From assembly GCA_025964355.1 (NCBI GenBank), contig JAOPZB010000074.1, forward strand, positions 1-45,670: DNA of 45,670 nt. The letters are read 5' to 3'. Below the pieces are notes generated by a model, which had not been told where the DNA came from, made no database searches, and saw only the letters and a program-made list of their open reading frames with translations. The position numbers and the translations under genes were made by a program. Source of the stretch: Solirubrobacterales bacterium (GTDB lineage: Bacteria; Actinomycetota; Thermoleophilia; Solirubrobacterales; Solirubrobacteraceae). Positions 4,021 to 31,227 of this stretch are shown here, in pieces. The first letter of the stretch is position 1. Each line of letters begins with the position of its first letter.

Positions 4021-4116
4021 CGGACGGCAGCGACGTGTTCGCGATTCGGCAATGCGATGGCCGGATCCCAACCCCGTGCAAGGTGACGGAGCATCGTCGC
4101 GCCGGATAACCTCGGA

Positions 4117-4142
4117 CTAAGCGGTTCGTAAGAGCCGTTTAG
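4117..4142. promoter_or_regulatory. Imperfect inverted repeat between divergent adaptor and NhaA genes
   Basis: CTAAGCGG and CCGTTTAG face each other across ten bases; seven of eight positions pair and the eighth is a G-T pair. It sits in the only intergenic gap between the divergent export operon (start 4020) and nhaA. It could be an operator or an RNA hairpin in the nhaA leader. No promoter boxes are certain nearby. Confidence 0.35.
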
Positions 4143-4151
4143 GAAAAGACC

Positions 4152-4177
4152 GCAGGCGAGGGCGGCTTCGCCCCTGC
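4152..4177 (+). promoter_or_regulatory. GC-rich hairpin immediately upstream of the NhaA start
   Basis: GCAGG...CCTGC encloses GGGCG-GCTT-CGCCC, giving a two-part stem with a small bulge (CGA on the 5' side). It ends five bases before ATG 4183. If transcribed, it would occlude the ribosome site of that ATG, which slightly favours the in-frame ATG at 4234 as the real start. Confidence 0.35.
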
Positions 4178-4182
4178 CCGAC

Positions 4183-6132: not shown

Positions 6133-6185
6133 CGCGGCTGCCTACGGCGCCCAGACGACGCCAGGGTTGCGTGCGCGACTAGCCT

Positions 6186-7544: not shown

Positions 7545-7607
7545 CTTCGTGGACACGACGTCCGGCATCCGGCCCGTGCGACAGGCAGGGTTGGTTCGAC
7601 GCGGCAC

Positions 7608-8084
7608 TCACTTGCCCGCTCCCGCTTGCAGCTCGTCGAGGAACGAGCCAAGCGTGTCCGTCGCGGCGCACAGCGCCGCGAGTTCGTGGTCCGATAGCCC
7701 GGCGAGGTCGGTCCGCAGCGCCGCGAGGACTCTGGCCCGGAAGGCCTTCAGCACCGACCGCCCCCGCCGCGCGATGGTGATCATCACGACACGCCCGTCC
7801 TCGGGCAGGCGTTTGCGAGTCACGTAGCCCCTCTCCTCCAGACGCTTGATCAGCAGGGTCATCGTCGGCTGTGCGAGCCCGGCGAGCTCGGCGAGCTCGG
7901 TGATCCGCCGCGGTCCGTCGCTCAGGATATTCAGGACCGACGCTTCGCTCCGGGAGATCTCGTCGCTGCGCACCTGCTTGACCAGCAGCTGCACGAGCAG
8001 CACGGTGCGCGAGAGCAGGTGGCTTGCGAGATAGTCGATCTGCGCGGCGCGCTCGGTCTCTGGATCCAGGGTCGAAAGACTCAT
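7608..8084 (-). CDS. MarR-family transcriptional regulator
   Basis: A 158-residue protein starting at ATG 8084. It is a winged-helix protein with the MarR core: helix pair SRSEASVLNILSDGPR, recognition helix ITELAELAGLAQPTMTLLIKRLEERG, and wing YVTRKRLPEDGRVVMITI (described in pieces). The C-terminal dimer helices contain a LAGLSDHELAALCAATD motif. A perfect inverted repeat (8092-8113) lies just upstream of the start, so autoregulation is likely. It is divergent from a universal stress protein gene and convergent with ndh. The effector is unknown; many MarR proteins sense phenolics or oxidants. Confidence 0.88.
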   Translation of the reverse strand: MSLSTLDPETERAAQIDYLASHLLSRTVLLVQLLVKQVRSDEISRSEASVLNILSDGPRRITELAELAGLAQPTMTLLIKRLEERGYVTRKRLPEDGRVVMITIARRGRSVLKAFRARVLAALRTDLAGLSDHELAALCAATDTLGSFLDELQAGAGK

Positions 8085-8091
8085 ATTGGAA

Positions 8092-8113
8092 ACTATATAG
8101 CCGTTGATATAGT
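8092..8113. promoter_or_regulatory. Candidate MarR operator (perfect inverted repeat)
   Basis: ACTATAT and ATATAGT are perfect 7-base arms around an 8-base spacer, in an AT-rich patch that stands out from the GC-rich surroundings. The repeat starts eight bases upstream of the MarR start and 48 bases upstream of the divergent stress-protein gene. Position and symmetry fit a MarR dimer site that also overlaps promoter elements. Confidence 0.6.
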
Positions 8114-8160
8114 CGTCAAACAACAGCCATGTCTGCTCCATGTCATGAAAGGAGCGCACC

Positions 8161-8649
8161 ATGTTCCATGAGGTTCTCGTAGCCGTCGATGGGTCGGCGG
8201 ACGCCGAGCAGGCTCTGATGCAGGCGATCGACCTTGCCGAGGCCGAGCACGCCAGGCTCACGCTGTTCAGCGCTGTGGTCTCGCCTCCAGCGGTTGCCTA
8301 CGCCGGGGTGAGCGGAGAAGTGGTCGCCAACCTCGCACGCGACGCCGAAGCCGAAGCCGAGAAGATCCTCAACGCGGCGGTCGAGCGAGTCCCAGACCAG
8401 GTATCGGTCAGCACCATGCTCAGCACGGCGCCCGTGCGGCTCGCGCTGCTCGACCAGATCAGAGACGGACACCATGACCTGGTGGTGATGGGCTCGCGCG
8501 GGCGAGGCGCCGTCCGCTCGGTGCTGCTCGGGAGCGTAAGCCACTACGTCCTGCACCACAGTCCGATCCCCGTCCTCATCGTGCACGCCGAGGGATCCCA
8601 GCAGACGACCGACGGCACAAGCACCAGCGGCCAGCAGGCGGCCGGGTGA
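8161..8649 (+). CDS. Universal stress protein (UspA family), single domain
   Basis: A 162-residue single Usp domain. It starts [18 protein letters not shown], with the Asp that contacts nucleotide, and ends with the ATP-binding signature [23 protein letters not shown] (in pieces: [14 protein letters not shown]), then PIPVLIVH. A strong AAGGAG lies eight bases before ATG 8161. The presence of the G-2X-G-9X-G(S/T) pattern suggests an ATP-binding member. It is divergent from the MarR gene with the likely operator between them, so it is a plausible target. A 62-base gap separates it from the sugar-phosphorylase pair. Confidence 0.92.
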
Positions 8650-8711
8650 ACGCGCCGGCGACCTGATCGCTGCTCGACGCGCAGAGCCTCAAGCTGGTTA
8701 GCTCTCAAGCT

Positions 8712-9455
8712 GTGCTCGGTTTACCCGCCGGTGTGACTGCGTGCCTGTTCGACCTCGACGGAGTGCTCACGCAGACGGCCAAGGTGCACGCCGCCGCCTG
8801 GAAGCAGGTGTTCGACGACTACCTGCGACGGCGCGCCGCGGCCAACGGCGAAGCGTTCGTCGCGTTCGATCCCGTCCGCGACTACGACGAATACGTCGAC
8901 GGCAGGCCTCGCTATGACGGCGTGCGATCGTTTCTGGCCTCGCGCGGGATCGAGCTACCCGACGGCGGTCCCGATGACCCGCCGGATGCCGAAACGGTTC
9001 ACGGACTTGGCAACCGCAAGAACGAGATCGTGCTCAAGCTGATCCGCGAGCACGGCGTGGAGCCCTACGAGGGGTCTGTTCGCTACGTGCAGGCGGCCCG
9101 CGCCGCCGGCCTGCGCCGCGCCGTCGTCTCGTCGAGCACCAACTGCCGCGACGTGCTCACCGCCGCCGGGATCAAAGATCTGTTCGAGGAGATAGTCGAC
9201 GGCGTCGTCGCCGAGCGCGAGCACCTGCACGGAAAGCCTGCGCCAGACACCTTCCTCGCCGGGGCGCGGGCCTTGCAGGTCGAGCCGGCCCAGGCCGCCG
9301 TGTTCGAGGACGCGCTGGCTGGAGTGGAGGCGGGCCGAGCGGGCCGCTTCGGCTTCGTCGTCGGTGTGGATCGTGTGGGCCAGGCCACCGAGTTGCGCGC
9401 ACACGGCGCCGACGTCGTGGTAGACGATCTGGCCGAGCTGCTGGACGCGCCGTGA
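8712..9455 (+). CDS. HAD-superfamily beta-phosphoglucomutase
   Basis: A 247-residue protein starting with GTG 8712. Motif [19 protein letters not shown] has the two Asp residues and the T/H loop typical of beta-PGM. Motif II Ser lies in [13 protein letters not shown], motif III Lys in [13 protein letters not shown], and motif IV in [13 protein letters not shown]. beta-PGM converts beta-glucose 1-phosphate to glucose 6-phosphate. Its stop overlaps the GTG start of a GH65 phosphorylase (GTGA), the classic pairing in which the phosphorylase releases beta-Glc-1-P. The cap region is longer than in Lactococcus PgmB, as in actinobacterial forms often annotated with trehalose metabolism. Confidence 0.9.
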
Positions 9456-11818
9456 TCCAGCATCCGGCCTTCGCGGTCGAGCCCTGGGTCGTGCGCGAGA
9501 CGGAGCTGGATCTCGACAGACTCGCACAGACGGAGTCGGTATTCGCACTCGCGAACGGCCACGTCGGCCTGCGCGGAAACCTCGACGAGGGGGAGCCGAG
9601 CGGCCTGCCGGGAACCTATCTCGCCGGCTTCTATGAGGTCCGACCGCTCCCCTACGCAGAGACCGCCTATGGCAATCCGGAGGCCGGCGAGACGGTCATC
9701 AACGTGACGAACGGCAAGATCATCCGACTGCTCGTCGAGGACGAGCCGTTTGACGTCCGCTACGGCGTATTGCATCGCCACGAACGGGTGCTCGACCTTC
9801 GTGCCGGAGTGCTGATCCGGACGCTCGAGTGGGAATCTCCCGCCGGCGGTTCAGTGCGAGTCTCCTCGACGCGCTTGGTCTCGTTCGCCCAGCGCGCGAT
9901 CGCGGCGATCCTCTACGAAGTCGAGGCCGTCGACGGCCCGACCGCCGTCGTCGTGCAGTCGGAGCTCGTCGCCAACGAGGAGACGCCGGTCGACGAGAGC
10001 GACCCCCGTGCCGCGGCGGCGCTTGCGTCTCCCCTGCACTCCCAACTCTCCGGGTCCCGCGACACGCGTCTGATGCTGGCGCATTCGACCGGCGCCAGCG
10101 GACTGACGATGGCCGCCGCGACCGATCACGCAATCGACGGTCCGCCGGGCACCACGGCGACCGCGGAGACCTACGAGGACCTCTGTCGCCTGCTCGTGGC
10201 CGCAGACCTCGTGCCCGGCAAGCCGCTTCGCCTGGTGAAGTTCATCGCCTACGGATGGTCCAGCCAGCGCTCGCTGCCAGCGATCTCAGCCCAGGTCACC
10301 GCGGCGCTGGCCGAGGCGCAACACGCCGGCTGGGACGGTCTCCTCTCCCAGCAACGCGCGTACCTGGACGACTTCTGGGATCGGGCGGACGTCGAGATCG
10401 ACGGTGACGCCGAGCTGCAACAGGCGGTTCGCTTCGGCCTCTTCCACACGCTCCAGGCCGGCGCCAGGGCCGAGAAGCGAGCGATCGCCGCCAAGGGCCT
10501 GACTGGACCCGGGTACGAAGGACACGCGTTCTGGGACACCGAGACATTCGCGTTGCCGGTCCTCACGTACACGGTCCCCCAGGCGGCCCGCGACGCCCTG
10601 TACTGGCGCCATCTGACGCTCGAGGCGGCACGGCAGCGGGCGACGTTGCTGGGGCTCAAGGGAGCCGCGTTCCCGTGGCGCACGATCCGCGGACAGGAGT
10701 GCTCGGGCTACTGGCCGGCGGGCCTCGCGGCATTCCACGTCAACGCCGATATCGCCGACGCGGTGGCTCGCTACCGGGCGGCCACCGAGGACGACACGTT
10801 CGAGCGCGCCGCCGGTCTGGAGGTGCTCGTCGAGACCGCGCGGTTGTGGCGGTCGCTCGGACACCACGACGCCGAAGGGAGCTTCCGGATCGATGGGGTC
10901 ACGGGGCCCGACGAGTACAGCGCGATCGCTGACAACAACGTCTACACCAATCTGATGGCCCAGCGGAACCTGCTCGCCGCCGTCGAGGCCGTCCAGCGCA
11001 ACGGCGACCGTGCAGCCGAACTGGGCGTGGACAGCGAAGAGTCCGCCGACTGGCGCGACGCCGCCGAAGCGATGCTGGTCCCCTACGACGGCGCGCGCAA
11101 GGTTCACCCGCAGGCCGAGTCGTTCACCCAGCACCAGGTCTGGGACTTCGCTTCCACAGGCCCCGAGCAGTATCCGCTGCTGCTGCACTTCCCCTACTTC
11201 GACCTCTATCGCAAGCAGGTCGTCAAGCAGGCCGATCTGGTCCTCGCGTTGCATCTGCGCGGGGACGCCTTCAGCGCGGAGGAGAAGGCGCGCGACTTCG
11301 ACTACTACGAGCGGCTGACGGTCCGCGACTCCTCTTTGTCGGCCTGCACGCAGTCGGTCATCGCCGCGGAGGTCGGCCATATGGAGCTCGCGTACGACTA
11401 CTTCGGCGAGGCCGCACTGATCGACCTCGATGACATCGAGCACAACACCCGCGACGGTGTCCACATCGCCTCGCTGGCGGGAGCATGGATCGCCGCCGTC
11501 GCTGGCTTCGGCGGCATGCGCGACCACGGCGGCAAGCTGAGCTTCGCGCCACGCCTCCCCGAGGTGATATCCCGCCTGGTGTTCCGCCTCACCTTCCAAG
11601 GCCGGCGGTTGGTGGTCGAGGTCGAGCCGCATCGCGCGACCTACTCGCTGCGCGAAGGCGAGCCGCTGGAGATCAGCCACCATGGCAAACGCCTGACGGT
11701 CGCCGGCAGGCCACGCGTGCGGTCGATCCCGCCGGCCCCGGCGCGCGACGCCCCGACCCAGCCTCCCGGGCGGGCACCGTCGCGGCGGCGACCGCCGCGG
11801 CCCAGCCGGTCTTCCTAG
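9452..11818 (+). CDS. Glycoside hydrolase family 65 disaccharide phosphorylase (trehalose/maltose/kojibiose type)
   Basis: 788 residues. An N-terminal beta-sandwich (about 1-270, [17 protein letters not shown]) is followed by an (alpha/alpha)6 barrel. [13 protein letters not shown] is the substrate-side motif, FPWRT[12 protein letters not shown] follows, and the predicted general acid Glu is at residue 488 in [10 protein letters not shown]. The phosphate/substrate loop ends in [12 protein letters not shown] with a GFGGMR motif, and a short C-terminal domain follows. The last about 25 residues are a Pro/Arg-rich tail unlike the family. GH65 phosphorylases invert an alpha-glucoside to beta-glucose 1-phosphate, which the coupled mutase would use. 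The exact disaccharide cannot be decided; trehalose is plausible as an actinobacterial stress sugar. Confidence 0.9.
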
Positions 11819-11872
11819 ATCCGGCAGCGCGGCATCGCTGTCCTGCGGAACCCCCGCGACGCTGCGCTCCGG

Positions 11873-12328
11873 CTAGGCTCGGAAGCCGCGCGGACGGCTG
11901 CGCGTTCGCTGCCAGGCGCCACATGCCTGAAATCGACGCCCGTTGCGCGCGCCGTGCAGGCGCCGCCGGCGGGGTCCGAAAAACCACCACCCTGCGGCCA
12001 GCCACAGCACCCACATCGCGAGCGCGCCCGTGAGGGCGAACACGACGGCCGCGACGAGCGCCAGCGCGACTGGCGCTGCGATCGCCATGCCCAGCGCCGG
12101 ACGGACCCAAGCCAGCTTGCGTGCTTCCGCCGGGCCTGTCAGACGCCGTCCCGGCAGATCGACTACGAGCGCGTTCAGTTGGCCGTAGGTGCGCGCCGAG
12201 AACGACGCTTCGAGGCGCTGCTCGAGCTCCTCGGTCACGAGCCTTCCTTCGGCGGCCGCCTGCCGCAGGCGCTCGCCCACGCGCTCGCGATCTGCGTCGG
12301 ATGCTCTCAGTGCTGCGCGGCTGGCCAT
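11873..12328 (-). CDS. DUF1707 domain membrane protein
   Basis: A 151-residue protein from ATG 12328. Residues about 8-60 fit DUF1707: RASDADRERVGERL, then GRLVTEELEQRLEA and A-R-TYGQLNALVVDLP. Two adjacent membrane helices follow (about 75-122, rich in Ala/Val/Leu, ending MWVLWLAAGWWFF). A basic tail (RRRRLHGARNGRRF) ends the protein. DUF1707 proteins are common in actinobacteria, with no firm biochemical role. The frame is open upstream to 12424, but the conserved domain starts right after this Met. It is divergent from the secreted repeat protein and convergent with the GH65 gene. Confidence 0.8.
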   Translation of the reverse strand: MASRAALRASDADRERVGERLRQAAAEGRLVTEELEQRLEASFSARTYGQLNALVVDLPGRRLTGPAEARKLAWVRPALGMAIAAPVALALVAAVVFALTGALAMWVLWLAAGWWFFGPRRRRLHGARNGRRFQACGAWQRTRSRPRGFRA

Positions 12329-16262: not shown

Positions 16263-17912
16263 TTAGTTCTCGAGCGGACACGGCGCGCCGCCGGCTGCGC
16301 GCTGCTGACGCTCGAGCGGTATCTCTCCGGCGACTTCGGCCTGGCCCATCGTGCCGAGCCTGTTGATCAACTCGGTGTAGCCGAGAAGCTCGTCATGCAT
16401 GACGTTGAAGTCGATGCCTTCCAGACGGAAGGGAGGGTCATACAGCGACTGAGGCGCGGAGATCACGCCGATCGTGGGGAGCAGGTGTTGGTTGTAGGGC
16501 GTGCCCTCGCCACCGAAGTTGCAGTGGGACGGCACCGTCGAGCCCGGCGCGTCGGCGCCCTGAAGCAGCATCGTGCGTTCCATGTTGTAGTTGCGCACGA
16601 CGTCGGTGACGGCGGCGACGAGGGCGGGGCTGGGCGTGATGCCGATGAACTGGATCGCTCGCAGCCCGTTGGGCATCAGTTCTGCGCCGGGACCGCCGTC
16701 GGCCCGCGGCATCTGCTCATAGTCGATCGCACCGAGATGCTCGAGCACTACCACCGAGGAGACCTTGCCCTGGTCGTATTCGCCGTCGAGCTGCGTGGCG
16801 ATCACGCCGGCGCCGCCGTGGCGGCGGTAGGGATCGACGAGTCGCTGGTAGAAGTGGGCGGTCGGGAAGACGAATTCGACGGTGCGTGGCCGGCAGGAAC
16901 TGGGCAGCCGCGCGAGGTACCGCGCCATCGCCACCATCGCCACCGGGCCGTTGTCCTCGACGGCATTGGTGCCGTCGGTGTGGCTGTCCACGACGATCCG
17001 CTGGGCGCTTTCGCCCGCAACCGTCGCGCGGATCGTGGGGGTTTCGACATGCCGGTAGCTCGCGTGCAGGACAAGCCGGGCTGAAACCGGTTGCCCGGAT
17101 GCCATCGCGTCGGAGATCTGCTTGCCTTCGTCGGCGCCCAGGTACACGGCAGGCACACGCCATGGAGTCCCCTCATAGGGCTCGTAATGGTCCGCCAGCT
17201 GCGTTTTCGGAAGTTCCTTGACGAACAGAATCCCCTTGGCACCTGCGGCTGCGGCATCGCGCAGGTCGGCCACGCGCGCGTTGTAGTTGATGAAGTCGCC
17301 GAAGAACGTCTGGGTCGGATCGATCGTGTTCTGCGGGTCATAGACGAACCAGCTGACGACTGGCAGGAAGAAGTCGTAGTTGGGCACGCCGCCGGCGGGC
17401 GCCGGACGCACGACGATGCGCCCCGCCGCGTTGGCCGCCGTGATCTTTTCTTCGTCGGGAACTTGGACCAGGGGAGCCGATACACCCGCGCTCGGAGTGC
17501 CTTCCGCGTATGGAACCGGCGCGGCGACGGGGATCCCCGTGGTCTGTCCGCCCGACGTCAGCTGGAGTTCCATCGAGCCGTGCGCCCAGCGGTTGATCGT
17601 AAAGCGCTGCTGACTGATTGCCAGCCCCGGCACTTTTTTGAGCTGACCGAGGATCCATTTGATGTAGGCGTTCTGCGCTGCGCTGCCTGTCGGTCGGACG
17701 CCCAACCCGGCAACGACCGTGTTCATTTCGCGCAGCGTTGCGGCGTCGGGCAGCGCCGAGGGGTCGGGTGCCACGGGGCAGCTCACAGCGCCCGGCAGAC
17801 CGCTCGGTGAGACGGCGGCGGCGGCCTGTGGCCCCGCCAGGAGCAACGGTGCGGCGAGCACGATCAGCAACGGCCACCGCCGACTGCGCCTTCGCGAGGC
17901 GCGCCCACTCAT
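16263..17912 (-). CDS. Exported M28-like peptidase with PA-type insert and degenerate active site
   Basis: 549 residues with a Sec/Tat-like signal (basic RRSRRWP, hydrophobic core, AAA cleavage region around 30). A central region resembling a PA domain (about 115-280) is followed by an M28-like fold. VVDSHTDGTNAVEDNGPVAMVAMARYL gives the H-x-D and Asp of the metal site (in pieces: SHTDG, EDNGP). At the place of the usual Glu-Glu catalytic pair, this protein has VEFVFPTAHFY and no Glu pair. VPSHCNFGGEGTP keeps a late His. This may mean loss of peptidase activity or a changed site. It is the last gene of a three-gene exported operon (ATGA overlap with the GH94-like gene). Confidence 0.7.
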   Translation of the reverse strand: MSGRASRRRSRRWPLLIVLAAPLLLAGPQAAAAVSPSGLPGAVSCPVAPDPSALPDAATLREMNTVVAGLGVRPTGSAAQNAYIKWILGQLKKVPGLAISQQRFTINRWAHGSMELQLTSGGQTTGIPVAAPVPYAEGTPSAGVSAPLVQVPDEEKITAANAAGRIVVRPAPAGGVPNYDFFLPVVSWFVYDPQNTIDPTQTFFGDFINYNARVADLRDAAAAGAKGILFVKELPKTQLADHYEPYEGTPWRVPAVYLGADEGKQISDAMASGQPVSARLVLHASYRHVETPTIRATVAGESAQRIVVDSHTDGTNAVEDNGPVAMVAMARYLARLPSSCRPRTVEFVFPTAHFYQRLVDPYRRHGGAGVIATQLDGEYDQGKVSSVVVLEHLGAIDYEQMPRADGGPGAELMPNGLRAIQFIGITPSPALVAAVTDVVRNYNMERTMLLQGADAPGSTVPSHCNFGGEGTPYNQHLLPTIGVISAPQSLYDPPFRLEGIDFNVMHDELLGYTELINRLGTMGQAEVAGEIPLERQQRAAGGAPCPLEN

Positions 17913-20593
17913 GGCCCGGTCACCGCCCAGTCGGCCGGCAGCCCCGCCTTGGTGGGAAGCGTGAATCGCACGAGGCCTTCGACGGCGCTGTGCGAGACCT
18001 GTTTGCCCGCTGCAAACGCGGTCACCTGGTCAGCTGCGAGGCCGGCGGGGGGGGCGACGCGCATCTCCACGTTGCCTCCGCTCGTGGTCACGTAGCCGCG
18101 GATCAGGCCCGGCTGCTCGGCGACCCCGACGTCAGGCAGGCGGATGTCGAATCTGCTCGTCGGCAGATGCGGCACCACGTCATAGCCGCCCTGCGTCGCT
18201 TCGACGCCTGCAAGCTTCAACAGGTCGAACAGGCTATAGGCGGGCTGGTGCATGATCTGGGTGTCGTAGCCGTTGACGACACCGGCGCCGGTGGCCAACC
18301 CGATCCCGCAGCTCGAGGGCGGCGACTGGTAATAGGAGGCGCACTCGTCATCGACGGAGATGACGCCGTCCCAGTGGTCCGGGAAGGCTGTGGCGTGTGC
18401 GGCGAGCGTGTTCCGCGTGAACTCATCCCAGGCATCCGCACCCGCCCCGGGGACCACGCCGTCGAGCGCGGCGAGCGCCCAGGTCATCTGTCCGTTCAGG
18501 GCGAACCACGCCCCACCGGGGAACTCCCTGCTGCTGTTCAATTCGGGCTCGTTCTGTTCGCTGGCCCCCGGGTCGGCGGATCCCGGCGCCATCGCCGCGC
18601 CGATCTTCGTCGGGCCGCCCGGCGCGCCGACGCCGACGAGGAAGCGCCGGTAGGCGGCGACGGCCTTGCCCGCCTGCTGGGGTGTGGCCGCGCCGGCGAG
18701 CAGCGCCCACGGCTGCGGCTCCTCGTAGATCGCACCGGAGCCGAGCTGTTTGGCGCCCGAGTAGCCTCGCGCGAACCAGCCGAGGCCGGCGTCGGCCGGC
18801 GTGACGCTTTCGCCGGGGACGAACTGGCCGGCGACGATTTCCTTGTCGCGCGTTCCCGCGGCGCGCAGTTCTCCCGCGAACGCGCTGTCTCCCATGAGGT
18901 CTGCCACGAGGGCCAGCCGCGGATAGATGTAGGCGGCCTGGGCGGTCACCAGGCTGGACTCGGTCATCTGATTGAACTCGGTTGAGAAGTCGTTCCAATC
19001 TCCCGTGCCTCCGGTGAGGTACTCGCCGTGCGGGCCGCGCCCAACCACTTCCTCCTGGTGGTGGAATGCCAGCTTTAGGTGTTCCCAGAGCGTCCCCGAG
19101 CCCGCGCCGTCGAAGGGAACCTGCTGCTTGAGGAACCCGAAGTCGCGCGTCGAGAGGGCGTACTCCGCCGTGCCCCAGAGCAGCCACTGATCGAGGTCAT
19201 CCGCGGTGCCGAGATCGAACCGGCGGCAGAGGCCGAGCCGGCCGTACGGGATCGTGCCGCCGACCGCGGGCTGCTCCTGCGCCGAGTAGGCGATCACGTC
19301 ACGGGCAAGCGCCGGGTCGCTCCAGATCATCGGCAGGACGTGCTGCAGCGGATCTCGGAACGCCTCGTTCTCACCGAAGAAGTACTGGTAGTAGCCGCCC
19401 TGGGAGAGGATGTGGTGGCCGGCGCACTCCTCATAGGTCGAGTCCGACCGCAGCGTGTATGCGTCCCACTCGAGCTCGCGTGATAGCCAGCTGTAGGCAC
19501 TCCCGAGTTCCACCTTGGGCAGCCACTTTGACCACTGCGCCTCACTCTGGGTGAACGCGCTCGTGGCGCTCCTATACGGGGCGAGCATCGCCTGGATCTT
19601 TTCCGGGTGCCCGTACCCGTAGGCGTAGCGAAGCGTCACCGAGGCGCCGGGTGCGAGCGAGACCGGGCTCTGCAGCGCGAACATCCCACGACCCTCTTCG
19701 CCGTTCACCGCCGGCGGCGCTGTCGAGTCAGTGAGCCGGCCACCCGTCACCGCGGCCGGGGCCGCCCGCGTGCCTGCGCCAAAGAAGGAGCTGGTGTCGG
19801 TGTCGTAAGCGCTGACGGGTGCCTGAAGCGCACTGGCGAAGATCGTGAGCGGCTGCGTATCGACGTCGTAGGGAAGCTGGGCGGCCGACAGCGTGCTCGT
19901 CTGCGGATCCCAGGTGGGCGACCCGTAGCCGCGCGCGAGCTGCGTCACGCCCTGGATCATCGGGTTCAGGTCCCAGTACTCGAAGTAGCTGCCGCTGAGC
20001 GTGGACCCGGACGTGTTCTTGATCGTCACGTCGTGCAGCAGCAGGGAGCTGTCGCCGAACGGGGCGTACACGCGATCCTGCTCGGCAACGCCGCTGAGCG
20101 TGGTGCGCTTTTCGTAGTAGCCCACTCCGTACACGCGCTCGGTCGACGCGCCGGCAGGACGATCGTCATACAGCGTCGAGATCACTTTGCCGCCGACGTT
20201 CAGGTAGCCGAATCCGCCGGCGTAATGGCTGTGGGAAGCGTCGTAGTAGTTCGTCCACTGATAGAGGCGGTCCTGGCTCCAGAGCTGCGTGTAGCCGTGG
20301 TTGGAGGCGTCGGCGACGATGTGATCGTTGCCGACCTGGCTCCAGGCATTCACGTTTCCGGTCAGCTCGGGCTGCGGGGCGATCGGACTTGTCAGCTCGT
20401 CGACTTCGTAGCGGTAGGAAGGCAGCTTGTGTGCGTCGACGATCCACTGCCCGAACGAGCCGCTGCCGTAGGTCGAGGAGATATTCGGCGCAGCATGTTC
20501 GGCCGACAGCCGTGGAGGCGCGGCGAGCGCCGAGGGCGCGGCCGCGAGCGCGAGTGCGAGCACAGCGGCGGCGACGACGTCGAGGCGACTCAC
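17909..20593 (-). CDS. Exported GH94-like (alpha/alpha)6-barrel protein
   Basis: 894 residues with a clear signal peptide (1-24, ending SALA-APP). The N-terminal half is a beta-rich domain (YFEYWDLNP). The middle is a barrel resembling GH94 (former GT36): GGYYQYFFGENEAFRDPLQHVLPMIW aligns with the family's GFRDQLQD region, a Q-P-VGG-I segment follows, and then TGDWNDFSTEF, matching GDWNDG with its general-acid Asp. GH94 phosphorylases are normally cytoplasmic, so an exported member is unusual, and phosphate supply outside the cell would argue for hydrolysis or another reaction. No recognised carbohydrate-binding module is visible. It is coupled by ATGA overlaps to both neighbours. Confidence 0.65.
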   Translation of the reverse strand: MSRLDVVAAAVLALALAAAPSALAAPPRLSAEHAAPNISSTYGSGSFGQWIVDAHKLPSYRYEVDELTSPIAPQPELTGNVNAWSQVGNDHIVADASNHGYTQLWSQDRLYQWTNYYDASHSHYAGGFGYLNVGGKVISTLYDDRPAGASTERVYGVGYYEKRTTLSGVAEQDRVYAPFGDSSLLLHDVTIKNTSGSTLSGSYFEYWDLNPMIQGVTQLARGYGSPTWDPQTSTLSAAQLPYDVDTQPLTIFASALQAPVSAYDTDTSSFFGAGTRAAPAAVTGGRLTDSTAPPAVNGEEGRGMFALQSPVSLAPGASVTLRYAYGYGHPEKIQAMLAPYRSATSAFTQSEAQWSKWLPKVELGSAYSWLSRELEWDAYTLRSDSTYEECAGHHILSQGGYYQYFFGENEAFRDPLQHVLPMIWSDPALARDVIAYSAQEQPAVGGTIPYGRLGLCRRFDLGTADDLDQWLLWGTAEYALSTRDFGFLKQQVPFDGAGSGTLWEHLKLAFHHQEEVVGRGPHGEYLTGGTGDWNDFSTEFNQMTESSLVTAQAAYIYPRLALVADLMGDSAFAGELRAAGTRDKEIVAGQFVPGESVTPADAGLGWFARGYSGAKQLGSGAIYEEPQPWALLAGAATPQQAGKAVAAYRRFLVGVGAPGGPTKIGAAMAPGSADPGASEQNEPELNSSREFPGGAWFALNGQMTWALAALDGVVPGAGADAWDEFTRNTLAAHATAFPDHWDGVISVDDECASYYQSPPSSCGIGLATGAGVVNGYDTQIMHQPAYSLFDLLKLAGVEATQGGYDVVPHLPTSRFDIRLPDVGVAEQPGLIRGYVTTSGGNVEMRVAPPAGLAADQVTAFAAGKQVSHSAVEGLVRFTLPTKAGLPADWAVTGP

Positions 20594-22056
20594 GGCAGGC
20601 TCGACGGCGTCAGAGAGCCGAAGCGAAGCGTGGAGACGTATCCGGTCGTCGGGGTCTTGCCGCTCGTGGCCGGGCCCAGCTGCTTGACCGCGCCGGACCA
20701 GAACGTCGTCCCGGACGAGTCGAACGCGCCGCCGATGAAGTCGGTCCGCGGAGAGCCTCCGCTCAGGCCGTAGTCGTGGAATATCGGCGACGCGGGATCG
20801 TTCATTGCGCCGCTGTAGAAGAGCGGCTGGCTGTCGAGCGCATCGGCAGTCTGGGTGATGTAGGCGCTCAACAGTTCCGCGGAGGGATCGCCGCTCGCGT
20901 AGTAGGCGACCGCGACATGTCCCGGTGCGCCCGCTGCGATGGCCGGCTTCTCGGCCTGTCCCACAGTGGGCGCGGCGATCATCATCGGCGAGCTCCAGCT
21001 CTGCGCGTGGTCACGTGAGACCGCGAGATACAGGAGCCCGTTGGCGGACCAGGTCGCGTAGAGGTTGTCGGCGTCGTCGACCGCCAGTTGCAGGTTCGTG
21101 CCGCTGATGACCGTACCCGTCGGGGCATCCTTCTCGGCGATCCACGTCTCGCTCGCGCCCTCGTCGCGACTGACGACGACGTATGCCGAGTGTTCGCAGT
21201 TCACCGGCTGGTAGATCGTTCCCCCGCTGTCGACCACCCCGGTGTTGAAGTTCAGCGGCGGGCAGACATCCGGCGGGTTGCTCGCGGTGGGCGAGGTGTA
21301 TCCGGCCAGCGTGAATGTCATCCCGCCGTCGAGCGACTTGTAGCAGAGGCGACCGGGACCGCTCACCTCCAGGGGCGAGTTGGCGCAGAGGTAGACGACA
21401 TCGGGATAGCCCACGGGCTGGGCGGCGCCGGTGCTTGCCGGCGGCGGCGGACCGACGAAGACCTTCTCCCAGTCTCCCGTGGGAGCCGTTTGGTAGTCGG
21501 CGGTTGTGAACGTCTTCGCGTCGTCGCTCGAGCTGTAGACCTGAAAGCCATAGGCAGCGGCGAGCCAGAAACCGGCTTCTTCCGGCAGTCCGCCCTCGTT
21601 GCGCACGGGTCCGGTCGCGTGCGCCCAGAAGACGCGCCCGGTGCGCCGGTCGGAGATGACGTACGGATCGACCGTGTTCCAGAACGATGTGGGCTGCTCC
21701 ACGGCCGGATATGTGAGGCTCCAACTCGCGCCGTCGTTCGACGAGCGCGCCATCGAGTTCTCGGTCTCGGCGGGGGAGTAGACGAGCACGCCGTTCTTGG
21801 TCATCGCGAGGCTCGACTCCGAGGTGGCATACCCGGTTTCGGTCGCGCAGGCCACAGGCAGCCGGTCGCCTTTCGGCAGTTTGACGATGCTTCCCCCGGC
21901 GCGATGGGCGACGACCGGCAACGAGCGGTCGCAGCCGGCGACCGCGGTGACCGAGGCCCATGTCGGCGTGGCAAAAGCGCCGACAACGAGTGCCGTGACG
22001 GTCGCGAACCCCGCGACCGCGCTTCGTCCCCGAGCTGTTCTTCGCCCCGACTCCAT
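20590..22056 (-). CDS. Exported sialidase/BNR-type beta-propeller protein
   Basis: 488 residues from ATG 22056, with AGAGGAG directly upstream. A signal peptide (about 1-34, ending WAS) precedes a repeat protein with Asp-box-like motifs, such as SSNDGASWSLTYP, SSSDDAKTFTTAD, SLDGGMTFTLAG and SRDHAQSWSSP. Together they suggest a six-bladed propeller as in sialidases or photosynthesis-like BNR proteins. The sialidase Arg triad cannot be assigned, so binding rather than hydrolysis is possible. It is the first gene of the exported operon and divergent from tetR. The frame extends to 22101, but the ribosome site favours 22056. Confidence 0.75.
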   Translation of the reverse strand: MESGRRTARGRSAVAGFATVTALVVGAFATPTWASVTAVAGCDRSLPVVAHRAGGSIVKLPKGDRLPVACATETGYATSESSLAMTKNGVLVYSPAETENSMARSSNDGASWSLTYPAVEQPTSFWNTVDPYVISDRRTGRVFWAHATGPVRNEGGLPEEAGFWLAAAYGFQVYSSSDDAKTFTTADYQTAPTGDWEKVFVGPPPPASTGAAQPVGYPDVVYLCANSPLEVSGPGRLCYKSLDGGMTFTLAGYTSPTASNPPDVCPPLNFNTGVVDSGGTIYQPVNCEHSAYVVVSRDEGASETWIAEKDAPTGTVISGTNLQLAVDDADNLYATWSANGLLYLAVSRDHAQSWSSPMMIAAPTVGQAEKPAIAAGAPGHVAVAYYASGDPSAELLSAYITQTADALDSQPLFYSGAMNDPASPIFHDYGLSGGSPRTDFIGGAFDSSGTTFWSGAVKQLGPATSGKTPTTGYVSTLRFGSLTPSSLP

Positions 22057-22090
22057 CTCTCCTCTTCCGCCCACTACCCAGGACCCGGAT

Positions 22091-22105
22091 AAAATACACA
22101 TGTGT
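22091..22105. promoter_or_regulatory. Palindrome ACACATGTGT and candidate -10 in the tetR/exported-operon gap
   Basis: A perfect 10-base palindrome occupies 22096-22105 and overlaps the tetR start codon. On the minus strand it is followed by TATTTT, a good -10 for the exported operon, about 40 bases before its ATG. A TetR dimer at this site would block both promoters. Confidence 0.5.
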
Positions 22106-22794
22106 CCTCAAAGACCCGATGGCGCGGCGAGCCCCTCCCCCGTGGGCGCCACAAACTTCCGGTATCCGCCGTCCGTGAGTCCCAGCGAGCGCGGCTCGTA
22201 CGCGCAATGCTCGAGTGCGTGGGGCGCGACGGCTACGAGGCCACGACCGTACCCCAGGTCGTGGCCACCGCACGGGTGTCGCGCAATGCCTTCTATGAGT
22301 TCTTCGAGGACAAGGCGGACTGCTTCATCGCCGTCTGCGATCAGACATCACAGGAGCTGCTCGCAGACCTACTGGAGCTCGCCTCCGAGGAGAACTGGGT
22401 CCAGGCGATGCGCAAGGGCGCGCACCGCTACCTGCTCTGGTGGCAGCAGCGGCCCACCATCTCGAGCGCCTACCTCCTGTCGCTGCCGACCGTCGGGGAG
22501 CGGGCGCTTCGCCAGCGCGAGCGCCACTACGCCGCCTTTCGCGCGGTCTTCATCGGCCTCGGCCACCGGGCGCGTGCCGAACAGCCCGAGCTCGGCCCGC
22601 TCGGCGACCTGGTCCCGCGTGTGCTCGTTCTCGCCATCACCGAGCTGGTCGCCGAAGAGGTCCGCGCGGGGCGCACGTCAAAACTGACCGAGCTGTCGCA
22701 GGAGGTTGCCCTGCTGGCGATCAGGTTGCTCGCGGATGACGCGACCGCTGAGCGGGCGCGCCTGACGCCCACGCCGGCGGGCGTGTGCGGCTAG
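22102..22794 (+). CDS. TetR-family transcriptional regulator
   Basis: 230 residues from GTG 22102 (later starts are possible; the HTH begins near residue 24). The DNA-binding part reads RESQRARLVRAMLECVGRDGYEATTVPQVVATARVSRNAFYEFFEDKADCF (described in pieces), with the typical F-Y-x-F-F-x-x-K ending. The ligand-binding half is helical and not assignable. It is divergent from the three-gene exported operon, with a palindrome in between, and is its probable repressor. Confidence 0.88.
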   Translation: MSSKTRWRGEPLPRGRHKLPVSAVRESQRARLVRAMLECVGRDGYEATTVPQVVATARVSRNAFYEFFEDKADCFIAVCDQTSQELLADLLELASEENWVQAMRKGAHRYLLWWQQRPTISSAYLLSLPTVGERALRQRERHYAAFRAVFIGLGHRARAEQPELGPLGDLVPRVLVLAITELVAEEVRAGRTSKLTELSQEVALLAIRLLADDATAERARLTPTPAGVCG

Positions 22795-26645: not shown

Positions 26646-28133
26646 CTATTTGGACATCTCAGCGTATGAAGGTGCCTCGCTCGCCCCAGCCAGTCCGCGC
26701 GCGGCACGGGGCAGAAGCGGCCGATGTTCGCGTGAGGCGACGCAGCCCCACCACACCCCGGCGGCGTAGGCCGCGTCATCGACCATCGCCAAGGCGCTCC
26801 AGCGAAGCGCGTCCAGCTCGCTGCCACAGGCACTCCACTCCCGCAGGATCGGCAGCGCCAGCAGAGCCAGCACGGCCGGCAGCGCCGATCCGCCTCGGCG
26901 CCGCGCGATCGCCAGCGTCACCGGCGCTCCGATCGTTCCCGCGTACCGGACGAGCGAAAGCGACGCGCGAAGGACCACCTCGCCGGACCAGCGCGCGGCG
27001 GTCCGCCGCGGCACACCCAGACGCTCGAGGCGAGCGGCGAAGCGCACGAGGGCCGCCGGGCTTGGTGGCAACGTCGCCGCGTTCAGACACCCCGGATGGC
27101 GAGCGCTGAGGGCGGCGGCCGCGGTTCCGTAGCGAAAGCGCCGCGCAAGCGCCGCGCGCAGCGTCGGCGGCTCGTCGTGTGAGACCTCGACCGCCGGGTC
27201 ATAGCGCACCCGCCAGCCCGCATCGTGCAGTCGCCATACGACGTCCACATCCTCGCCGTAGCGCAGGTCCTCGTCGAAGCCCGCCTCCAGCGCTCCGCGG
27301 CGCACGAGCAGAGCGGCGCTCGGCACGTACGTCAGGCTTCCGCCCGGCCTGACCGGCGCCTCGCGCGCTCCCATGTCCAGCGGCGAGCGCGAGCGGAGAT
27401 AGCGTCCGAGTGCTCCGCTTCTTCCTCGCGACTCGCGCGGGAGAGGACCTTCCTGGTCGAGGCCACTCCACCCGACCACGTTCTGACCGGCGCCGCCCGC
27501 CGGGCGCACGCGCGGTGCGACCGCCGCCACGGTCGCGTCGTCGAAATGCCCGACCAGTGCGCGGAGCCAGTCCTCGGGAGGCACGCAATCGCTGTCCAGG
27601 AACGCCACCAGCTCGGTGCTGAGCTTTGCCAGGGCGTCGTTCCGCGCGGCCGCCGGACCGCCGGGCAGCGGTCTGCGGATCAGCTTCGCACCGTGGCGCG
27701 CGGCCAGCGCCGCCACCGCCGCCGCATCGAGCGATCCGTCGTCGACCACGATCGTGCACGAGCGGCGACCGACGGCCGCGAGACAGCGCGCGAGCTGCTC
27801 TGGGCGGTCACGAACGGGGATCACCACGGTCACGCGATCGTCTACGTCACGCGTGACCGGGCGGGGGTGGGCCACTCCAGCGTCGAGCAGGCGCCGGCCA
27901 AGCACGCGCGCCGGCTGTGAGTCGATGCGCCCTTCTTGCACTGCCCGTAGCGCCCTCACGCCGGCGGCGGAGAGTCGCAGCAGCCGGCGTGGCGATCCAC
28001 CCGCCAGCAGCCCCGGTGCGACCAGCCGAGCGTCCGGGTCGAGTGCCAAGCGCGGCGGCGGTGGCGATAGCCCTTCTATCCGCGGCGGCGGCGATGTGAG
28101 CGGGCGCTGCACGCCAGGCGGGTGCCCTCTCAC
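26646..28133 (-). CDS. mftF: Mycofactocin system glycosyltransferase MftF
   Basis: 495 residues starting from GTG 28133, which overlaps the SDR stop as GTGA; this start removes a spurious Arg-rich extension. N-terminal about 95 residues contain the MftF-typical LLAGGSPRRLLRLSAAG segment, an RRE-like region. A GT2 domain follows: VTVVIPVRDRPEQLARCL, DDGS at 131-134, FLDSDCVPP with the metal-binding DxD-like motif, then a conserved RYGEDVDVVWRL. The C-terminus has hydrophobic segments that may anchor it. MftF adds beta-1,4-glucose units to premycofactocin. It is the last gene of the mft operon here. Confidence 0.93.
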   Translation of the reverse strand: MRGHPPGVQRPLTSPPPRIEGLSPPPPRLALDPDARLVAPGLLAGGSPRRLLRLSAAGVRALRAVQEGRIDSQPARVLGRRLLDAGVAHPRPVTRDVDDRVTVVIPVRDRPEQLARCLAAVGRRSCTIVVDDGSLDAAAVAALAARHGAKLIRRPLPGGPAAARNDALAKLSTELVAFLDSDCVPPEDWLRALVGHFDDATVAAVAPRVRPAGGAGQNVVGWSGLDQEGPLPRESRGRSGALGRYLRSRSPLDMGAREAPVRPGGSLTYVPSAALLVRRGALEAGFDEDLRYGEDVDVVWRLHDAGWRVRYDPAVEVSHDEPPTLRAALARRFRYGTAAAALSARHPGCLNAATLPPSPAALVRFAARLERLGVPRRTAARWSGEVVLRASLSLVRYAGTIGAPVTLAIARRRGGSALPAVLALLALPILREWSACGSELDALRWSALAMVDDAAYAAGVWWGCVASREHRPLLPRAARGLAGASEAPSYAEMSK

Positions 28134-28915
28134 AGCGACAGGCCGCCGTCGATCAGATAGTCCGCTCCGGTCACACCGGCGCCGCCGGCGCCCGCCAGCC
28201 ACACGATCAGCGCGGCGATCTCCTCGGGCGCAAGCAGCCGTTCGATTGGCTGCTGGGCGGCGAAGCGCTCGGCCGAGTCCAGCTCATAGAGGCGGGCGCT
28301 CTCCTCGAGGATCGAGGTGTGCGTCGATCCCGGACTGACTGCGTTGGCAGTGATGCCAGTGCCACGCAGCTCCAACGCCAGCGCTCGCACCAGCCCGGTG
28401 ACGCCCGCCTTCGTGGCGCAGTAGGCCGCCAGCATCGGCAGGCCGCGCGAGGCCGCCGAGGAGGCGACCGCGACGAAGCGTCCGGCGCGCGGCTGCGGGC
28501 GCCGCAGGAGCGCCGGAATACCCGCGCGCGCGGCGGCGATGACGCCGCCGAGGTTCGTCTCGATCACAGCCTCCAGCGCCTGAGCCGGCATCTCCCAAAG
28601 CGGCACGCCGCCGGCCACCACGCCCGCGGCGGCGATGACCGCGTCGATGCCGCCGTGCGTCCGCTCCGTATCCGCCATCAGCCGCTCCATGGCGCCGGGA
28701 TCGCCAGCATCGACCACCGCGGCGCTTACGCGCTCGGCGTCGAGCGATGCGACGAGCGCATGCAGCTCCGCATGTGAGCCGAGCGCGTACGGCAGGCGCG
28801 GGTCGTCGGCAGCGCGGTCGGCGGCGACGACCGTCCAGCCGTCCTCCGTCAGCGCGCGCACGGTCGCCGCGCCGATGCCCCGCGCGGCGCCGGTCACGAC
28901 CGCTACACGGCTCAC
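28130..28915 (-). CDS. Mycofactocin-locus short-chain dehydrogenase (SDR)
   Basis: 261 residues. It has the NAD-binding TGAARGIGAAT motif, AAGVVAGG (NAG variant), catalytic Ser in VASSAASRG and YCATK (Tyr-x3-Lys). The sequence PYALGSHAELHAL after the Rossmann turn is reminiscent of mycofactocin-associated SDRs, where the segment may enclose the NAD. It lies between mftD and mftF, 13 bases after mftD, where mftE stands in mycobacteria. It would oxidise an alcohol using tightly bound NAD with mycofactocin as electron acceptor (family knowledge; substrate unknown). Confidence 0.85.
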   Translation of the reverse strand: MSRVAVVTGAARGIGAATVRALTEDGWTVVAADRAADDPRLPYALGSHAELHALVASLDAERVSAAVVDAGDPGAMERLMADTERTHGGIDAVIAAAGVVAGGVPLWEMPAQALEAVIETNLGGVIAAARAGIPALLRRPQPRAGRFVAVASSAASRGLPMLAAYCATKAGVTGLVRALALELRGTGITANAVSPGSTHTSILEESARLYELDSAERFAAQQPIERLLAPEEIAALIVWLAGAGGAGVTGADYLIDGGLSL

Positions 28916-28928
28916 GCTGTCCCCATCC

Positions 28929-30101
28929 TCACGTTCCGAGTACCCGCATGAAGCCGGGTGGGACCAGGACGTCGGCGCTGTTCAGCTCGGCAACCGAGGC
29001 GCGCCCGAGGGCGAGCAGCGCCGAGTCGATGCCCGCCCCCAGGATGTCCAGCACGTTCTCCACGCCCGCCTGCCCGCCGGCCGCGAGGCCCCACAGGTAG
29101 GGACGCCCGATCATCACCGCGCGCGCTCCCAGCGCCAGCCCCTTGGCCACGTCGCCGCCACGGCGCACGCCACCGTCGAGCAGCACCTCGACCTGCGCAC
29201 CGACCGCCTCTGCGACGGCGCCCAGCGCGCGGATCGACGCCGGGGTTCCGTCGAGGTTGTTGCCGCCGTGGTTGGAAACCGACAGAGCGGTTGCGCCGAT
29301 CTGCACCGCGCGCCGCGCGTCGTCCACGCGCATCACGCCCTTGAGCATGAACGGACCCTGCCACTGCTCGCGCAGCCAGCGCAGGTCCTCCCAGCTCGGC
29401 GGGGCCGTCTGCATCCACTCGGCGTATGCCTCGAAGAAGCTCGGAGCGCGCTCACCATCCACCGCCATGTTCGGCACGGTCAGCTGCGGCGGGCCGCCTG
29501 CCCTCGCCCATTCCAGTAGCCAGCTCGGCCGCACGAGCGCGCCGGGCGCCAGCCGTGCCATCGTCGCCAGGCTCATCCGCTCGGGAACCGTGGGGCTGCC
29601 CCAGTCGCGAGCATGGGCGAACGACCAGTCCAGCGTCACGATCAAGCCGACCGCGCCGGCCACGCGGGCTCGCTCCAGCCGCCGCAGGATGCGCTCGCGC
29701 GATCCGGCCCAGTAGACCTGGAAGAGCGTCTGCGGGTTGGCGGCCACGACCTGCTCCACAGGCTTGCTCGCGAAGGAGCTCAGGCCGATGGCCGTGCCGC
29801 GCGCCGCCGCGGCGCGTGCGACCGCCAGCTCGCCTTCCGGGTGCACCGCCTGAACGCCCGTCGGCGAGATCAGGACCGGAAGCGCCAGCTCCTGACCCAT
29901 TACCGTCACGGCCGTGCTGCGCTCGGCGGCCGCGCCCGCGACGTGCGGCGCGAAGCCCAGCTCCGCGAACGCAGCCACGTTGTCGGCAAGCGTCAGCCCC
30001 GACTCAGTGCCGGCGAGCACTGCCATGTACACGTCCCGGGGCAGCCGGCGCTTTGCGCGCCGCTGCGCCTCCGCGACGCTCTCAAACCACGACGATCGCA
30101 T
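28929..30101 (-). CDS. mftD: Premycofactocin synthase MftD (FMN-dependent)
   Basis: 390 residues of the lactate-oxidase/alpha-hydroxyacid dehydrogenase fold: LPVLISPTGVQAVHPEGE, a PFMLKGVMRVDDARRAV strand with the FMN Lys, VSNHGGNNLDGTPAS with the catalytic His, and LLDGGVRRGGDVAKGLALGARAVMIGRP (in pieces). The VSNHGGNNLDG variant is characteristic of MftD. It converts AGDP, made from the MftA C-terminus, to premycofactocin by oxidative deamination. Its start overlaps the end of mftC by 20 bases. FMN phosphate-binding Arg/Gly residues are retained. Confidence 0.95.
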   Translation of the reverse strand: MRSSWFESVAEAQRRAKRRLPRDVYMAVLAGTESGLTLADNVAAFAELGFAPHVAGAAAERSTAVTVMGQELALPVLISPTGVQAVHPEGELAVARAAAARGTAIGLSSFASKPVEQVVAANPQTLFQVYWAGSRERILRRLERARVAGAVGLIVTLDWSFAHARDWGSPTVPERMSLATMARLAPGALVRPSWLLEWARAGGPPQLTVPNMAVDGERAPSFFEAYAEWMQTAPPSWEDLRWLREQWQGPFMLKGVMRVDDARRAVQIGATALSVSNHGGNNLDGTPASIRALGAVAEAVGAQVEVLLDGGVRRGGDVAKGLALGARAVMIGRPYLWGLAAGGQAGVENVLDILGAGIDSALLALGRASVAELNSADVLVPPGFMRVLGT

Positions 30102-31227
30102 CGGGGCTCCCGTTTGCGGCGCGTCGCGACATGTTCACGGAGGGTCGCGGCAACGGCCGATGGCCGCGGGCAGCGAGCGCCTTCTCGCCATGACCGAGCG
30201 CGCACTCCGGGTCCGGGCCGGCGAGCGGCAGGCCCGTGAAGAACTTCGCCGCCATGCAGCCGCCGCGGCAGCTGTCGTAGAAGCCGCAGCTGCCGCAGAC
30301 GCCGGCGGACTGCGGCCGGCGCAGATCGAGGAACAGGTCCGATTCGCGCCACACCGAGGTGAAGCCACCCTCCTGACGAACGTTGCCGGCGAGAAACTGC
30401 TCGTGGATCGCGAAGGGGCACGCATACACGTCCCCAACCGGATCGATCAGGCACACCACCCGGCCGGCGCCGCACAGGTTCAGCCCGGGCAGCTTCTGGC
30501 CGTATGCGGAGAGGTGGAAGAACGAGTCGCCCGTCAGCACCTGCTCCCCCTGGTCCAGCAGCCACTCATAGACCGCTCTCTGCTGAGCTGCCGTGGGTCG
30601 CAGCTCGTCCCACACGTCGGCTCCGCGCCCGGAGGGCCGCAGCCGTGTGAGGCGCAGCTGGGCGCCGTAGCGATCGGCCAGTGTCTTGAGGCGGTCGAGT
30701 TCTCCCGCGTTGCGGCGCGTGAGCACCACCGAGACCTTGAACGGGCCGAAGCCAGCCTCGGCGAGGTGGTCCATGGCGCGCAGCGCCATCGCGTGCGAGC
30801 CTGTGCCGCGGATCGCGTCGTTGACGTCGACGCTGGCGCCGTCGATCGAGACCTGCACATCAACGTAGTCGGCCGCCGCCAGGCGTGCGGCGGCCGGTGC
30901 CGTGATGCGGCTGCCGTTGGTGGAGAACTTGACCCCGACCCTGCGCGCGCTCGCGTAGTCCACGATCTCCCAGAAGTCGCGGCGAACGGTCGGCTCGCCG
31001 CCGCCGATGTTCACGTAGAAGACCTGCAGCCGCTGGAGCTCGTCGACGATCGCCATGCACTCCTCGCTGCTCAGCTCCCGCGGATCGCGCCGGCCTGAAC
31101 TCGAAAGACAGTGCACGCATGCGAGGTTGCACGCGTATGTCAGCTCCCATGTGAGGCAGATCGGGGCATCCAGCCCCGACTCGAAGCGCTCCGCCAGGCC
31201 CAGGGCAGGAGCGCCGCCTGCGCTCAT
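30082..31227 (-). CDS. mftC: Mycofactocin radical SAM maturase MftC
   Basis: 381 residues. Radical SAM cluster C33-x3-C37-x2-C40 (YACNLACVHC), followed by SSSGRRDPRELS, is a hallmark of MftC. NIGGGEPTVR is the SAM-binding GGE motif. The SPASM domain has Cys ligands in CGAGRVVCLIDPVGDVYACPF and in GVCGSCGFYDSCRGGC near the end (in pieces). MftC decarboxylates the C-terminal Tyr of MftA and forms the Val-Tyr crosslink. Its start overlaps the mftB stop (ATGA). Confidence 0.96.
   Translation of the reverse strand: MSAGGAPALGLAERFESGLDAPICLTWELTYACNLACVHCLSSSGRRDPRELSSEECMAIVDELQRLQVFYVNIGGGEPTVRRDFWEIVDYASARRVGVKFSTNGSRITAPAAARLAAADYVDVQVSIDGASVDVNDAIRGTGSHAMALRAMDHLAEAGFGPFKVSVVLTRRNAGELDRLKTLADRYGAQLRLTRLRPSGRGADVWDELRPTAAQQRAVYEWLLDQGEQVLTGDSFFHLSAYGQKLPGLNLCGAGRVVCLIDPVGDVYACPFAIHEQFLAGNVRQEGGFTSVWRESDLFLDLRRPQSAGVCGSCGFYDSCRGGCMAAKFFTGLPLAGPDPECALGHGEKALAARGHRPLPRPSVNMSRRAANGSPDAIVVV

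What the first reader, a model, noticed from the sequence alone, without database searches (positions are those of the whole stretch)
16263..22056. Operon of three exported proteins, including a GH94-like protein outside the cell
A BNR propeller, a GH94-like barrel with an intact GDWND motif and an M28-like protein without its Glu pair are coupled by ATGA overlaps and controlled by a divergent TetR gene. GH94 enzymes are cytoplasmic phosphorylases, so an exported one with a signal peptide is unexpected. The three might form an extracellular glycan- or glycopeptide-processing unit.
Basis: partly seen in the sequence, partly recalled or inferred. Interest (0 to 1): 0.55.

Follow-up and report, generated by a model that had tools for sequence, protein, structure and literature searches.

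The report
Secreted GH94-fold enzyme operon
A soil actinobacterium carries a co-regulated set of three exported proteins, one of which is built like an intracellular sugar phosphorylase but has lost the residues that hold phosphate, so it most likely cuts sugars outside the cell with water instead.

Summary
In detail: three 4-bp-overlapping minus-strand genes (16263-22056) with export signals, and a divergent TetR gene. The middle protein has the GH94 fold throughout (both Pfam GH94 domains; model closest to cellobiose phosphorylases, Z about 28). It keeps the general acid (D535) and the -1 subsite Arg, but three phosphate-site residues are replaced in 17 of 17 non-canonical relatives compared (R351 never Arg, H666 never His, Q712 always Gly). 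It is therefore probably not a phosphorylase but a hydrolase derived from GH94, like the GH65 hydrolase that lost its phosphate site. The M28-fold partner has His in place of the base Glu in 13 of 13 relatives. The third protein is an Asp-box propeller without the sialidase RIP motif. The exact trio occurs in 3 same-genus genomes. Across 11 of 399 class genomes with the exported GH94-like gene, the M28-like gene lies nearby in 6, a secreted esterase in 7 and the same TetR type in 5. Best reading: a regulated extracellular glycoconjugate-degrading cassette with swappable parts. Substrate and activity are untested. The phosphorylase paradox is largely resolved; the extracellular-unit idea is partly supported.

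The parts
20590..22056 (-). Exported Asp-box (BNR) propeller protein; the open frame extends to 22101 but the ATG at 22056 is the likelier start
17909..20593 (-). Exported GH94-fold protein, 894 aa, GTG start
18989..18991 (-). Codon of D535, position of the GH94 general acid (GDWND)
16263..17912 (-). Exported M28-fold protein with a PA-type insert; His in place of the catalytic Glu
16854..16856 (-). Codon of H353, at the general-base Glu position of M28 aminopeptidases
20590..20593 (-). GTGA stop/start overlap between propeller and GH94-like genes
17909..17912 (-). ATGA stop/start overlap between GH94-like and M28-like genes
22102..22794 (+). Divergent TetR-type regulator, 230 aa; relatives 50-81% identical lie at 4 other GH94-like loci

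Best explanation
A TetR-controlled operon makes three proteins that are exported from a soil actinobacterium and together break down an extracellular glycoconjugate. The GH94-fold protein is an inverting glycoside hydrolase derived from the GH94 phosphorylase scaffold: D535 protonates the leaving group (inferred from position), and water rather than phosphate attacks, because the phosphate ligands are gone (loss shown by alignment, consequence inferred). The M28-fold protein is a metal-dependent hydrolase that uses H353 as base (inferred) and removes an amide- or ester-linked part. The Asp-box propeller binds the substrate; in other genera a secreted esterase is encoded at that place. Shown: gene anatomy, folds (from models), residue losses, recurrence of the partners. 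Inferred: hydrolysis, His base, joint action, substrate class.
For: Both GH94 Pfam domains in 15 of 15 exported homologs; model Z about 28 to cellobiose phosphorylases over about 700 residues, the first non-GH94 chain at 23.2. Against a canonical same-family cellobiose phosphorylase (L094, 496 bits), in 17 of 17 others the phosphate Arg, His and Gln are lost, while the acid Asp and the FRD Arg are kept (17 of 17 each; Trp 16 of 17). Phosphate ligands taken from PMC6720390 Table 3. Precedent: the GH65 hydrolase FjGH65A lost its phosphate site and has a Glu base, PMC8626586. Export: hydrophobic N-terminus in 12 of 12 exported rows, absent in 5 of 5 distant rows and in the canonical enzyme. Association: M28-like near in 6, PF00756-type esterase in 7, same TetR type in 5 of 11 class genomes. 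His at the base position in 13 of 13 M28-like proteins; a functional Glu-to-His mutant is known at that position in Aeromonas aminopeptidase (title of PDB 2anp; reference listed in PMC3426542).
Against: No general base is identified for the GH94-like protein; the active-site loops of its model have pLDDT below 50, and the T731 position could not be aligned reliably. Five related proteins without export signals also lack the phosphate site, so the loss is not tied to export. Loci L023 and L028 of G307 and L089 of G417 carry the exported GH94-like gene without M28-like, esterase or TetR relatives nearby. No sugar importer was seen next to the operon.
Confidence: 0.55

Rival explanations
1. The GH94-like protein is still a phosphorylase, with a rebuilt phosphate site, working outside the cell or in the wall space.
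For: The fold, general acid and FRD Arg are kept. One phosphate-site residue (His) is Met or Gln in two cellodextrin phosphorylases (PMC6720390 Table 3), so the site tolerates some change.
Against: Arg, His and Gln are all lost in 17 of 17, and Gln is Gly without exception. Phosphorolysis outside the cell would waste the phosphate gain unless sugar phosphates are imported; no such importer was seen near.
Confidence: 0.1
2. The GH94-like protein is a transglycosylase or glycan-remodelling enzyme of the cell's own envelope rather than a degrader; the M28-like protein and esterase trim the same envelope glycan.
For: It is exported and co-encoded with PF00756 esterases, a family that includes Ag85-type acyltransferases (recalled). 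A GH94 domain adjusts chain length in cyclic glucan synthase (PMC11842490, passage).
Against: The M28-like gene also pairs with GH3 and GH78 loci and with sugar ABC transporter genes, which looks catabolic. Distribution is patchy (11 of 399 class genomes), unlike an envelope housekeeping function.
Confidence: 0.2
3. The GH94-like and M28-like proteins are non-catalytic binding proteins (pseudoenzymes), as with M28-fold receptors.
For: Catalytic or ligand residues are missing in both; M28-fold transferrin receptors, a non-peptidase case (recalled), rank among the structural matches.
Against: The acid Asp is invariant in 17 of 17, and D313, H353, E391 and H392 are invariant in 13 of 13; a dead enzyme would be expected to lose them.
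Confidence: 0.12

Closest known systems
GH94 cellobiose phosphorylases (CgCBP 2cqs, CuCBP 3rrs)
   Same: Two-domain fold over almost the whole length; acid Asp, Trp and Arg of the -1 subsite
   Different: Exported; phosphate Arg, His and Gln and the -1 subsite Glu replaced
GH65 hydrolase FjGH65A (PMC8626586, passages)
   Same: A phosphorylase scaffold in which the phosphate site is lost and the acid is kept; also encoded with a signal peptide
   Different: Different family; there a Glu base was shown by mutation, here no base is identified
AfcA fucosidase (PMC8106489, passage; GH95 recalled)
   Same: Extracellular (recalled) inverting hydrolase with a structure like GH65/GH94
   Different: Different family; water thought to be activated by two Asn, not tested here
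M28 aminopeptidases with PA insert (BSAP 6hc7, 3iib)
   Same: Fold including the PA-type insert; H-x-D and D-N-G motifs
   Different: Glu-Glu replaced by His-(Phe/Leu/Met or gap); the last His ligand is variable; no Pfam M28 hit in 13 of 13
Asp-box sialidase-type propellers (7qxo, 2bf6)
   Same: Asp-box repeats
   Different: No RIP motif in 8 of 8

Membership tests
GH94 phosphorylases | Supersandwich plus (alpha/alpha)6 barrel of GH94 | tested here: met
GH94 phosphorylases | General acid Asp (CgCBP D490) | tested here: met
   window D535; 17 of 17
GH94 phosphorylases | Phosphate-binding Arg, His, Gln (CgCBP R351, H666, Q712) | tested here: not met
   0, 0 and 0 of 17 keep them; ligand list from PMC6720390 Table 3
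GH94 phosphorylases | Fourth phosphate residue Thr/Ser (CgCBP T731) | tested here: inconclusive
   Alignment unreliable there
GH94 phosphorylases | Phosphorolysis of a beta-glycoside | not testable with these tools
   needs an assay
Peptidase M28 | M28 fold | tested here: met
   model pLDDT 83, Z 28 to BSAP
Peptidase M28 | His-x-Asp and bridging Asp/Glu | tested here: met
   H311 in 11 of 13, D313 in 13 of 13, Asp or Glu at 320 in 13 of 13
Peptidase M28 | Catalytic base Glu plus metal Glu (Glu-Glu) | tested here: not met
   His in 13 of 13 at the first place; Phe, Leu, Met or gap at the second
Peptidase M28 | Peptidase activity | not testable with these tools
   needs an assay
GH33 sialidases | Asp-box repeats | tested here: met
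GH33 sialidases | F/Y/VRIP motif | tested here: not met
   0 of 8
GH33 sialidases | Catalytic Arg triad and Tyr/Glu | not tested
   propeller not modelled
TetR regulators | TetR_N helix-turn-helix | tested here: met
   PF00440 37.3 bits, cut-off 24

The most novel reading that the evidence does not exclude
The exported clade is a branch of the GH94 fold that works as a hydrolase, the first of its kind, and its partner is a new M28-type family that uses a natural His base; the two, with exchangeable esterase or propeller subunits under one TetR type, form a modular extracellular glycoconjugate-degrading system of one class of soil actinobacteria.
Probability: 0.4. Interest if true: 0.65.

Novelty: new variant of a known kind. 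Interest (0 to 1): 0.5.

Why it matters
GH94 is described as a phosphorylase family. A natural clade that keeps the acid but lacks the phosphate site would show how a phosphorylase and a hydrolase interconvert on this scaffold, as was shown for GH65. The M28-like family gives a natural counterpart to a laboratory Glu-to-His mutant. Both would change how exported GH94-annotated genes in soil actinobacterial metagenomes are read: as extracellular degradation, not intracellular phosphorolysis.

Tried and rejected
Operator search: the palindrome ACACATGTGT upstream of the window's TetR recurs in G013 but overlaps the start codon and is absent from the other six TetR promoters looked at; dropped. 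R362 was first taken as a phosphate ligand (note); PMC5309861 places it at the acceptor side and Table 3 of PMC6720390 points to the preceding Arg, so the mapping was redone. A link to the mycofactocin genes in the window was considered, since mycofactocin carries a glucose chain (recalled); no mycofactocin gene was recognised by eye near the homologs (not searched by profile), and export argues against it; not pursued. Use of model distances to find a general base was abandoned because the active-site loops have pLDDT under 50. The hhalign comparison misaligned the region around the phosphate Arg and the C-terminal part; the MAFFT alignment A5 and the HMM alignment to PDB chains were used instead and agree on R351 and H666; Q712 rests on A5 alone. 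The propeller was not modelled (model jobs spent). Literature: six searches listed no title or abstract start naming an exported GH94 hydrolase; most subscription papers are not held. The tree groups the 15 exported rows as one side of a branch with only 56/98 support; a single origin is not shown.

Full report
What is there. On the minus strand, genes for an Asp-box propeller protein (20590-22056, open frame to 22101), a GH94-fold protein (17909-20593) and an M28-fold protein (16263-17912) overlap by 4 bp each, GTGA at the first junction and ATGA at the second. A TetR gene (22102-22794, +) is divergent. The contig belongs to an 84% complete genome of 2.78 Mb; named relatives are an Actinobacteria MAG and a Solirubrobacterales MAG.

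The GH94-fold protein. Pfam gives both GH94 domains over their cut-offs, and both match all 15 exported homologs scanned. The AlphaFold model (mean pLDDT 73.8) matches cellobiose phosphorylases at Z about 28 over roughly 700 residues; fungal rhamnosidases follow at 23. A canonical cellobiose phosphorylase exists in the same bacterial family (G024, 496 bits) and served as reference. In the alignment of 18 proteins, of the 17 others 17 keep the general acid Asp (window D535), 17 keep the Arg of FRD, 16 keep the Trp of DWND and 13 the Asp of FRD. None keeps the phosphate Arg (CgCBP R351), none the phosphate His (H666), and all 17 have Gly in place of the phosphate Gln (Q712). None keeps the -1 subsite Glu (E659). 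The ligand assignment is from Table 3 of PMC6720390 (section read) and passages of PMC5309861, carried over to CgCBP numbering by motif. The Thr at 731 could not be placed with certainty. The R351 and H666 positions agree with the profile alignment to PDB chains.

Export. The highest 13-residue hydropathy near the N-terminus is 2.1 to 2.8 in the 12 exported rows of that alignment, and -0.1 to 0.8 in five distant actinobacterial rows; it is 0.9 in the canonical enzyme. No signal-peptide predictor was available. The five distant, non-exported proteins also lack the phosphate residues, so the loss of the site is older than, or independent of, export. The tree is compatible with one exported group but supports it weakly (56/98).

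The M28-fold protein. Its family profile finds peptidase M28 3iib (5e-8), and the model (pLDDT 83.2) matches the zinc aminopeptidase BSAP at Z 28.2 over 379 residues. No Pfam M28 model hits any of the 13 relatives. His-x-Asp (11 of 13 for the His, 13 of 13 for the Asp) and an Asp or Glu at the bridging place (13 of 13) are kept. At the place of the base Glu, as aligned to 3iib, all 13 have His (H353); the following metal Glu is Phe, Leu, Met or a gap; E391 and H392 are invariant; the last His ligand is kept in 7 of 13. A Glu-to-His mutant at this place in Aeromonas aminopeptidase is titled 'functional' (2anp; reference seen in PMC3426542). A working enzyme with a His base is therefore plausible but not shown. 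Which residues correspond to which metal ligand beyond the alignment is recalled knowledge of M28 motifs.

The propeller. Six loose Asp-box matches at four distinct places, against 0.25 in shuffles (0 of 2000 reach six); the profile matches Asp-box sialidases in the PDB (5e-8); no RIP motif in 8 of 8. Pfam BNR models hit 5 of the 8 relatives but not the window's own protein at E 0.01.

Recurrence. Exported GH94-like genes occur in 11 of 399 class genomes, in 3 of 24 genomes of the window's genus, own included, and with strong similarity in one further genome of the phylum sample, G417. In the 11 class genomes the M28-like gene lies within about 2 kb in 6 (G000, G009, G013, G255, G281, G370), a PF00756-type esterase within 0.9 kb in 7 (G255, G049, G281, G305, G358, G370, G402), and a TetR 50-81% identical to the window's lies within about 4 kb in 4 besides the window's own genome (G013, G255, G370, G402) (two of the esterases were checked against Pfam, the rest by similarity to them). 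The propeller is found beside it only in G000, G009 and G013. G307 has none of these partners at either of its two loci. Some contigs end close to the gene (L022, L025, L026), so absences there are uncertain. The exact trio is thus local, while the GH94-like/M28-like/esterase/TetR association is wider.

The same TetR type and M28-like family also recur with other secreted glycosidases: in the window's own genome a TetR 68% identical is divergent from a GH3 enzyme followed by an M28-like gene (L091), and G013 has propeller, TetR, a GH3-like gene, M28-like and an S15-type hydrolase together (L080) (GH3 was tested by Pfam in L091 only). Three other genomes have M28-like and PETase-like hydrolase genes beside a rhamnosidase-type gene (L084-L086; Pfam tested in L084). 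This catabolic company is the main reason for preferring degradation of an external glycoconjugate over envelope remodelling.

Mechanism and status. Shown: anatomy, fold by model, residue losses, gene association. Inferred: hydrolysis instead of phosphorolysis, following the GH65 precedent in which the phosphate site is not conserved and a Glu base is present (PMC8626586, passages); His base in the M28-like protein; joint action on one substrate. Not known: the base of the GH94-like protein, the substrate, the TetR ligand. By the membership tests it is a GH94-fold protein that should not be called a GH94 phosphorylase.

Noticed in passing
L091 (G000:C2) 3023-7724; L080 (G013:C174) 3916-11985; L092 (G000:C3) 5755-8604: Close paralogs of the window's TetR sit beside other M28-like genes, twice with a GH3-type glycosidase and once also with a propeller paralog, suggesting a family of parallel TetR-controlled secreted cassettes.
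   Followed up: partly
L084, L085, L086: M28-like plus PETase-like hydrolase genes next to a rhamnosidase-type (GH78) gene, sugar ABC transporter genes, and in some an acyl-CoA-ligase-like and a beta-lactamase-like gene; two of the three also have an exported protein of 639-650 aa without a Pfam hit where tested (L084).
   Followed up: partly
window 26646-31227: Mycofactocin genes (MftF, coupled SDR, MftD, radical SAM MftC) a few kb from the operon.
   Followed up: no
window 8712-11818: A beta-phosphoglucomutase-family gene overlapping a GH65 gene, i.e. a second glycoside-phosphorylase-type locus in the same window.
   Followed up: no
L050 / G402:C15:1-222: A contig-edge fragment 81% identical to the window's M28-like protein in a genome of another family, far closer than expected; could be transfer or mis-binning.
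   Followed up: no
window 22086-22101 and the same place in L020: A TAAAAT box a few bases before the TetR start codon, hinting at a leaderless TetR transcript.
   Followed up: no
L023:8737-11376, L024:1843-4530, L025:5547-8309, L022:1261-3990: A subgroup of the GH94-like proteins reads Arg-Ser instead of Arg-Asp at the FRD motif and has Asp at the phosphate-His position (4 of 4 rows); possibly a different active site or base.
   Followed up: partly
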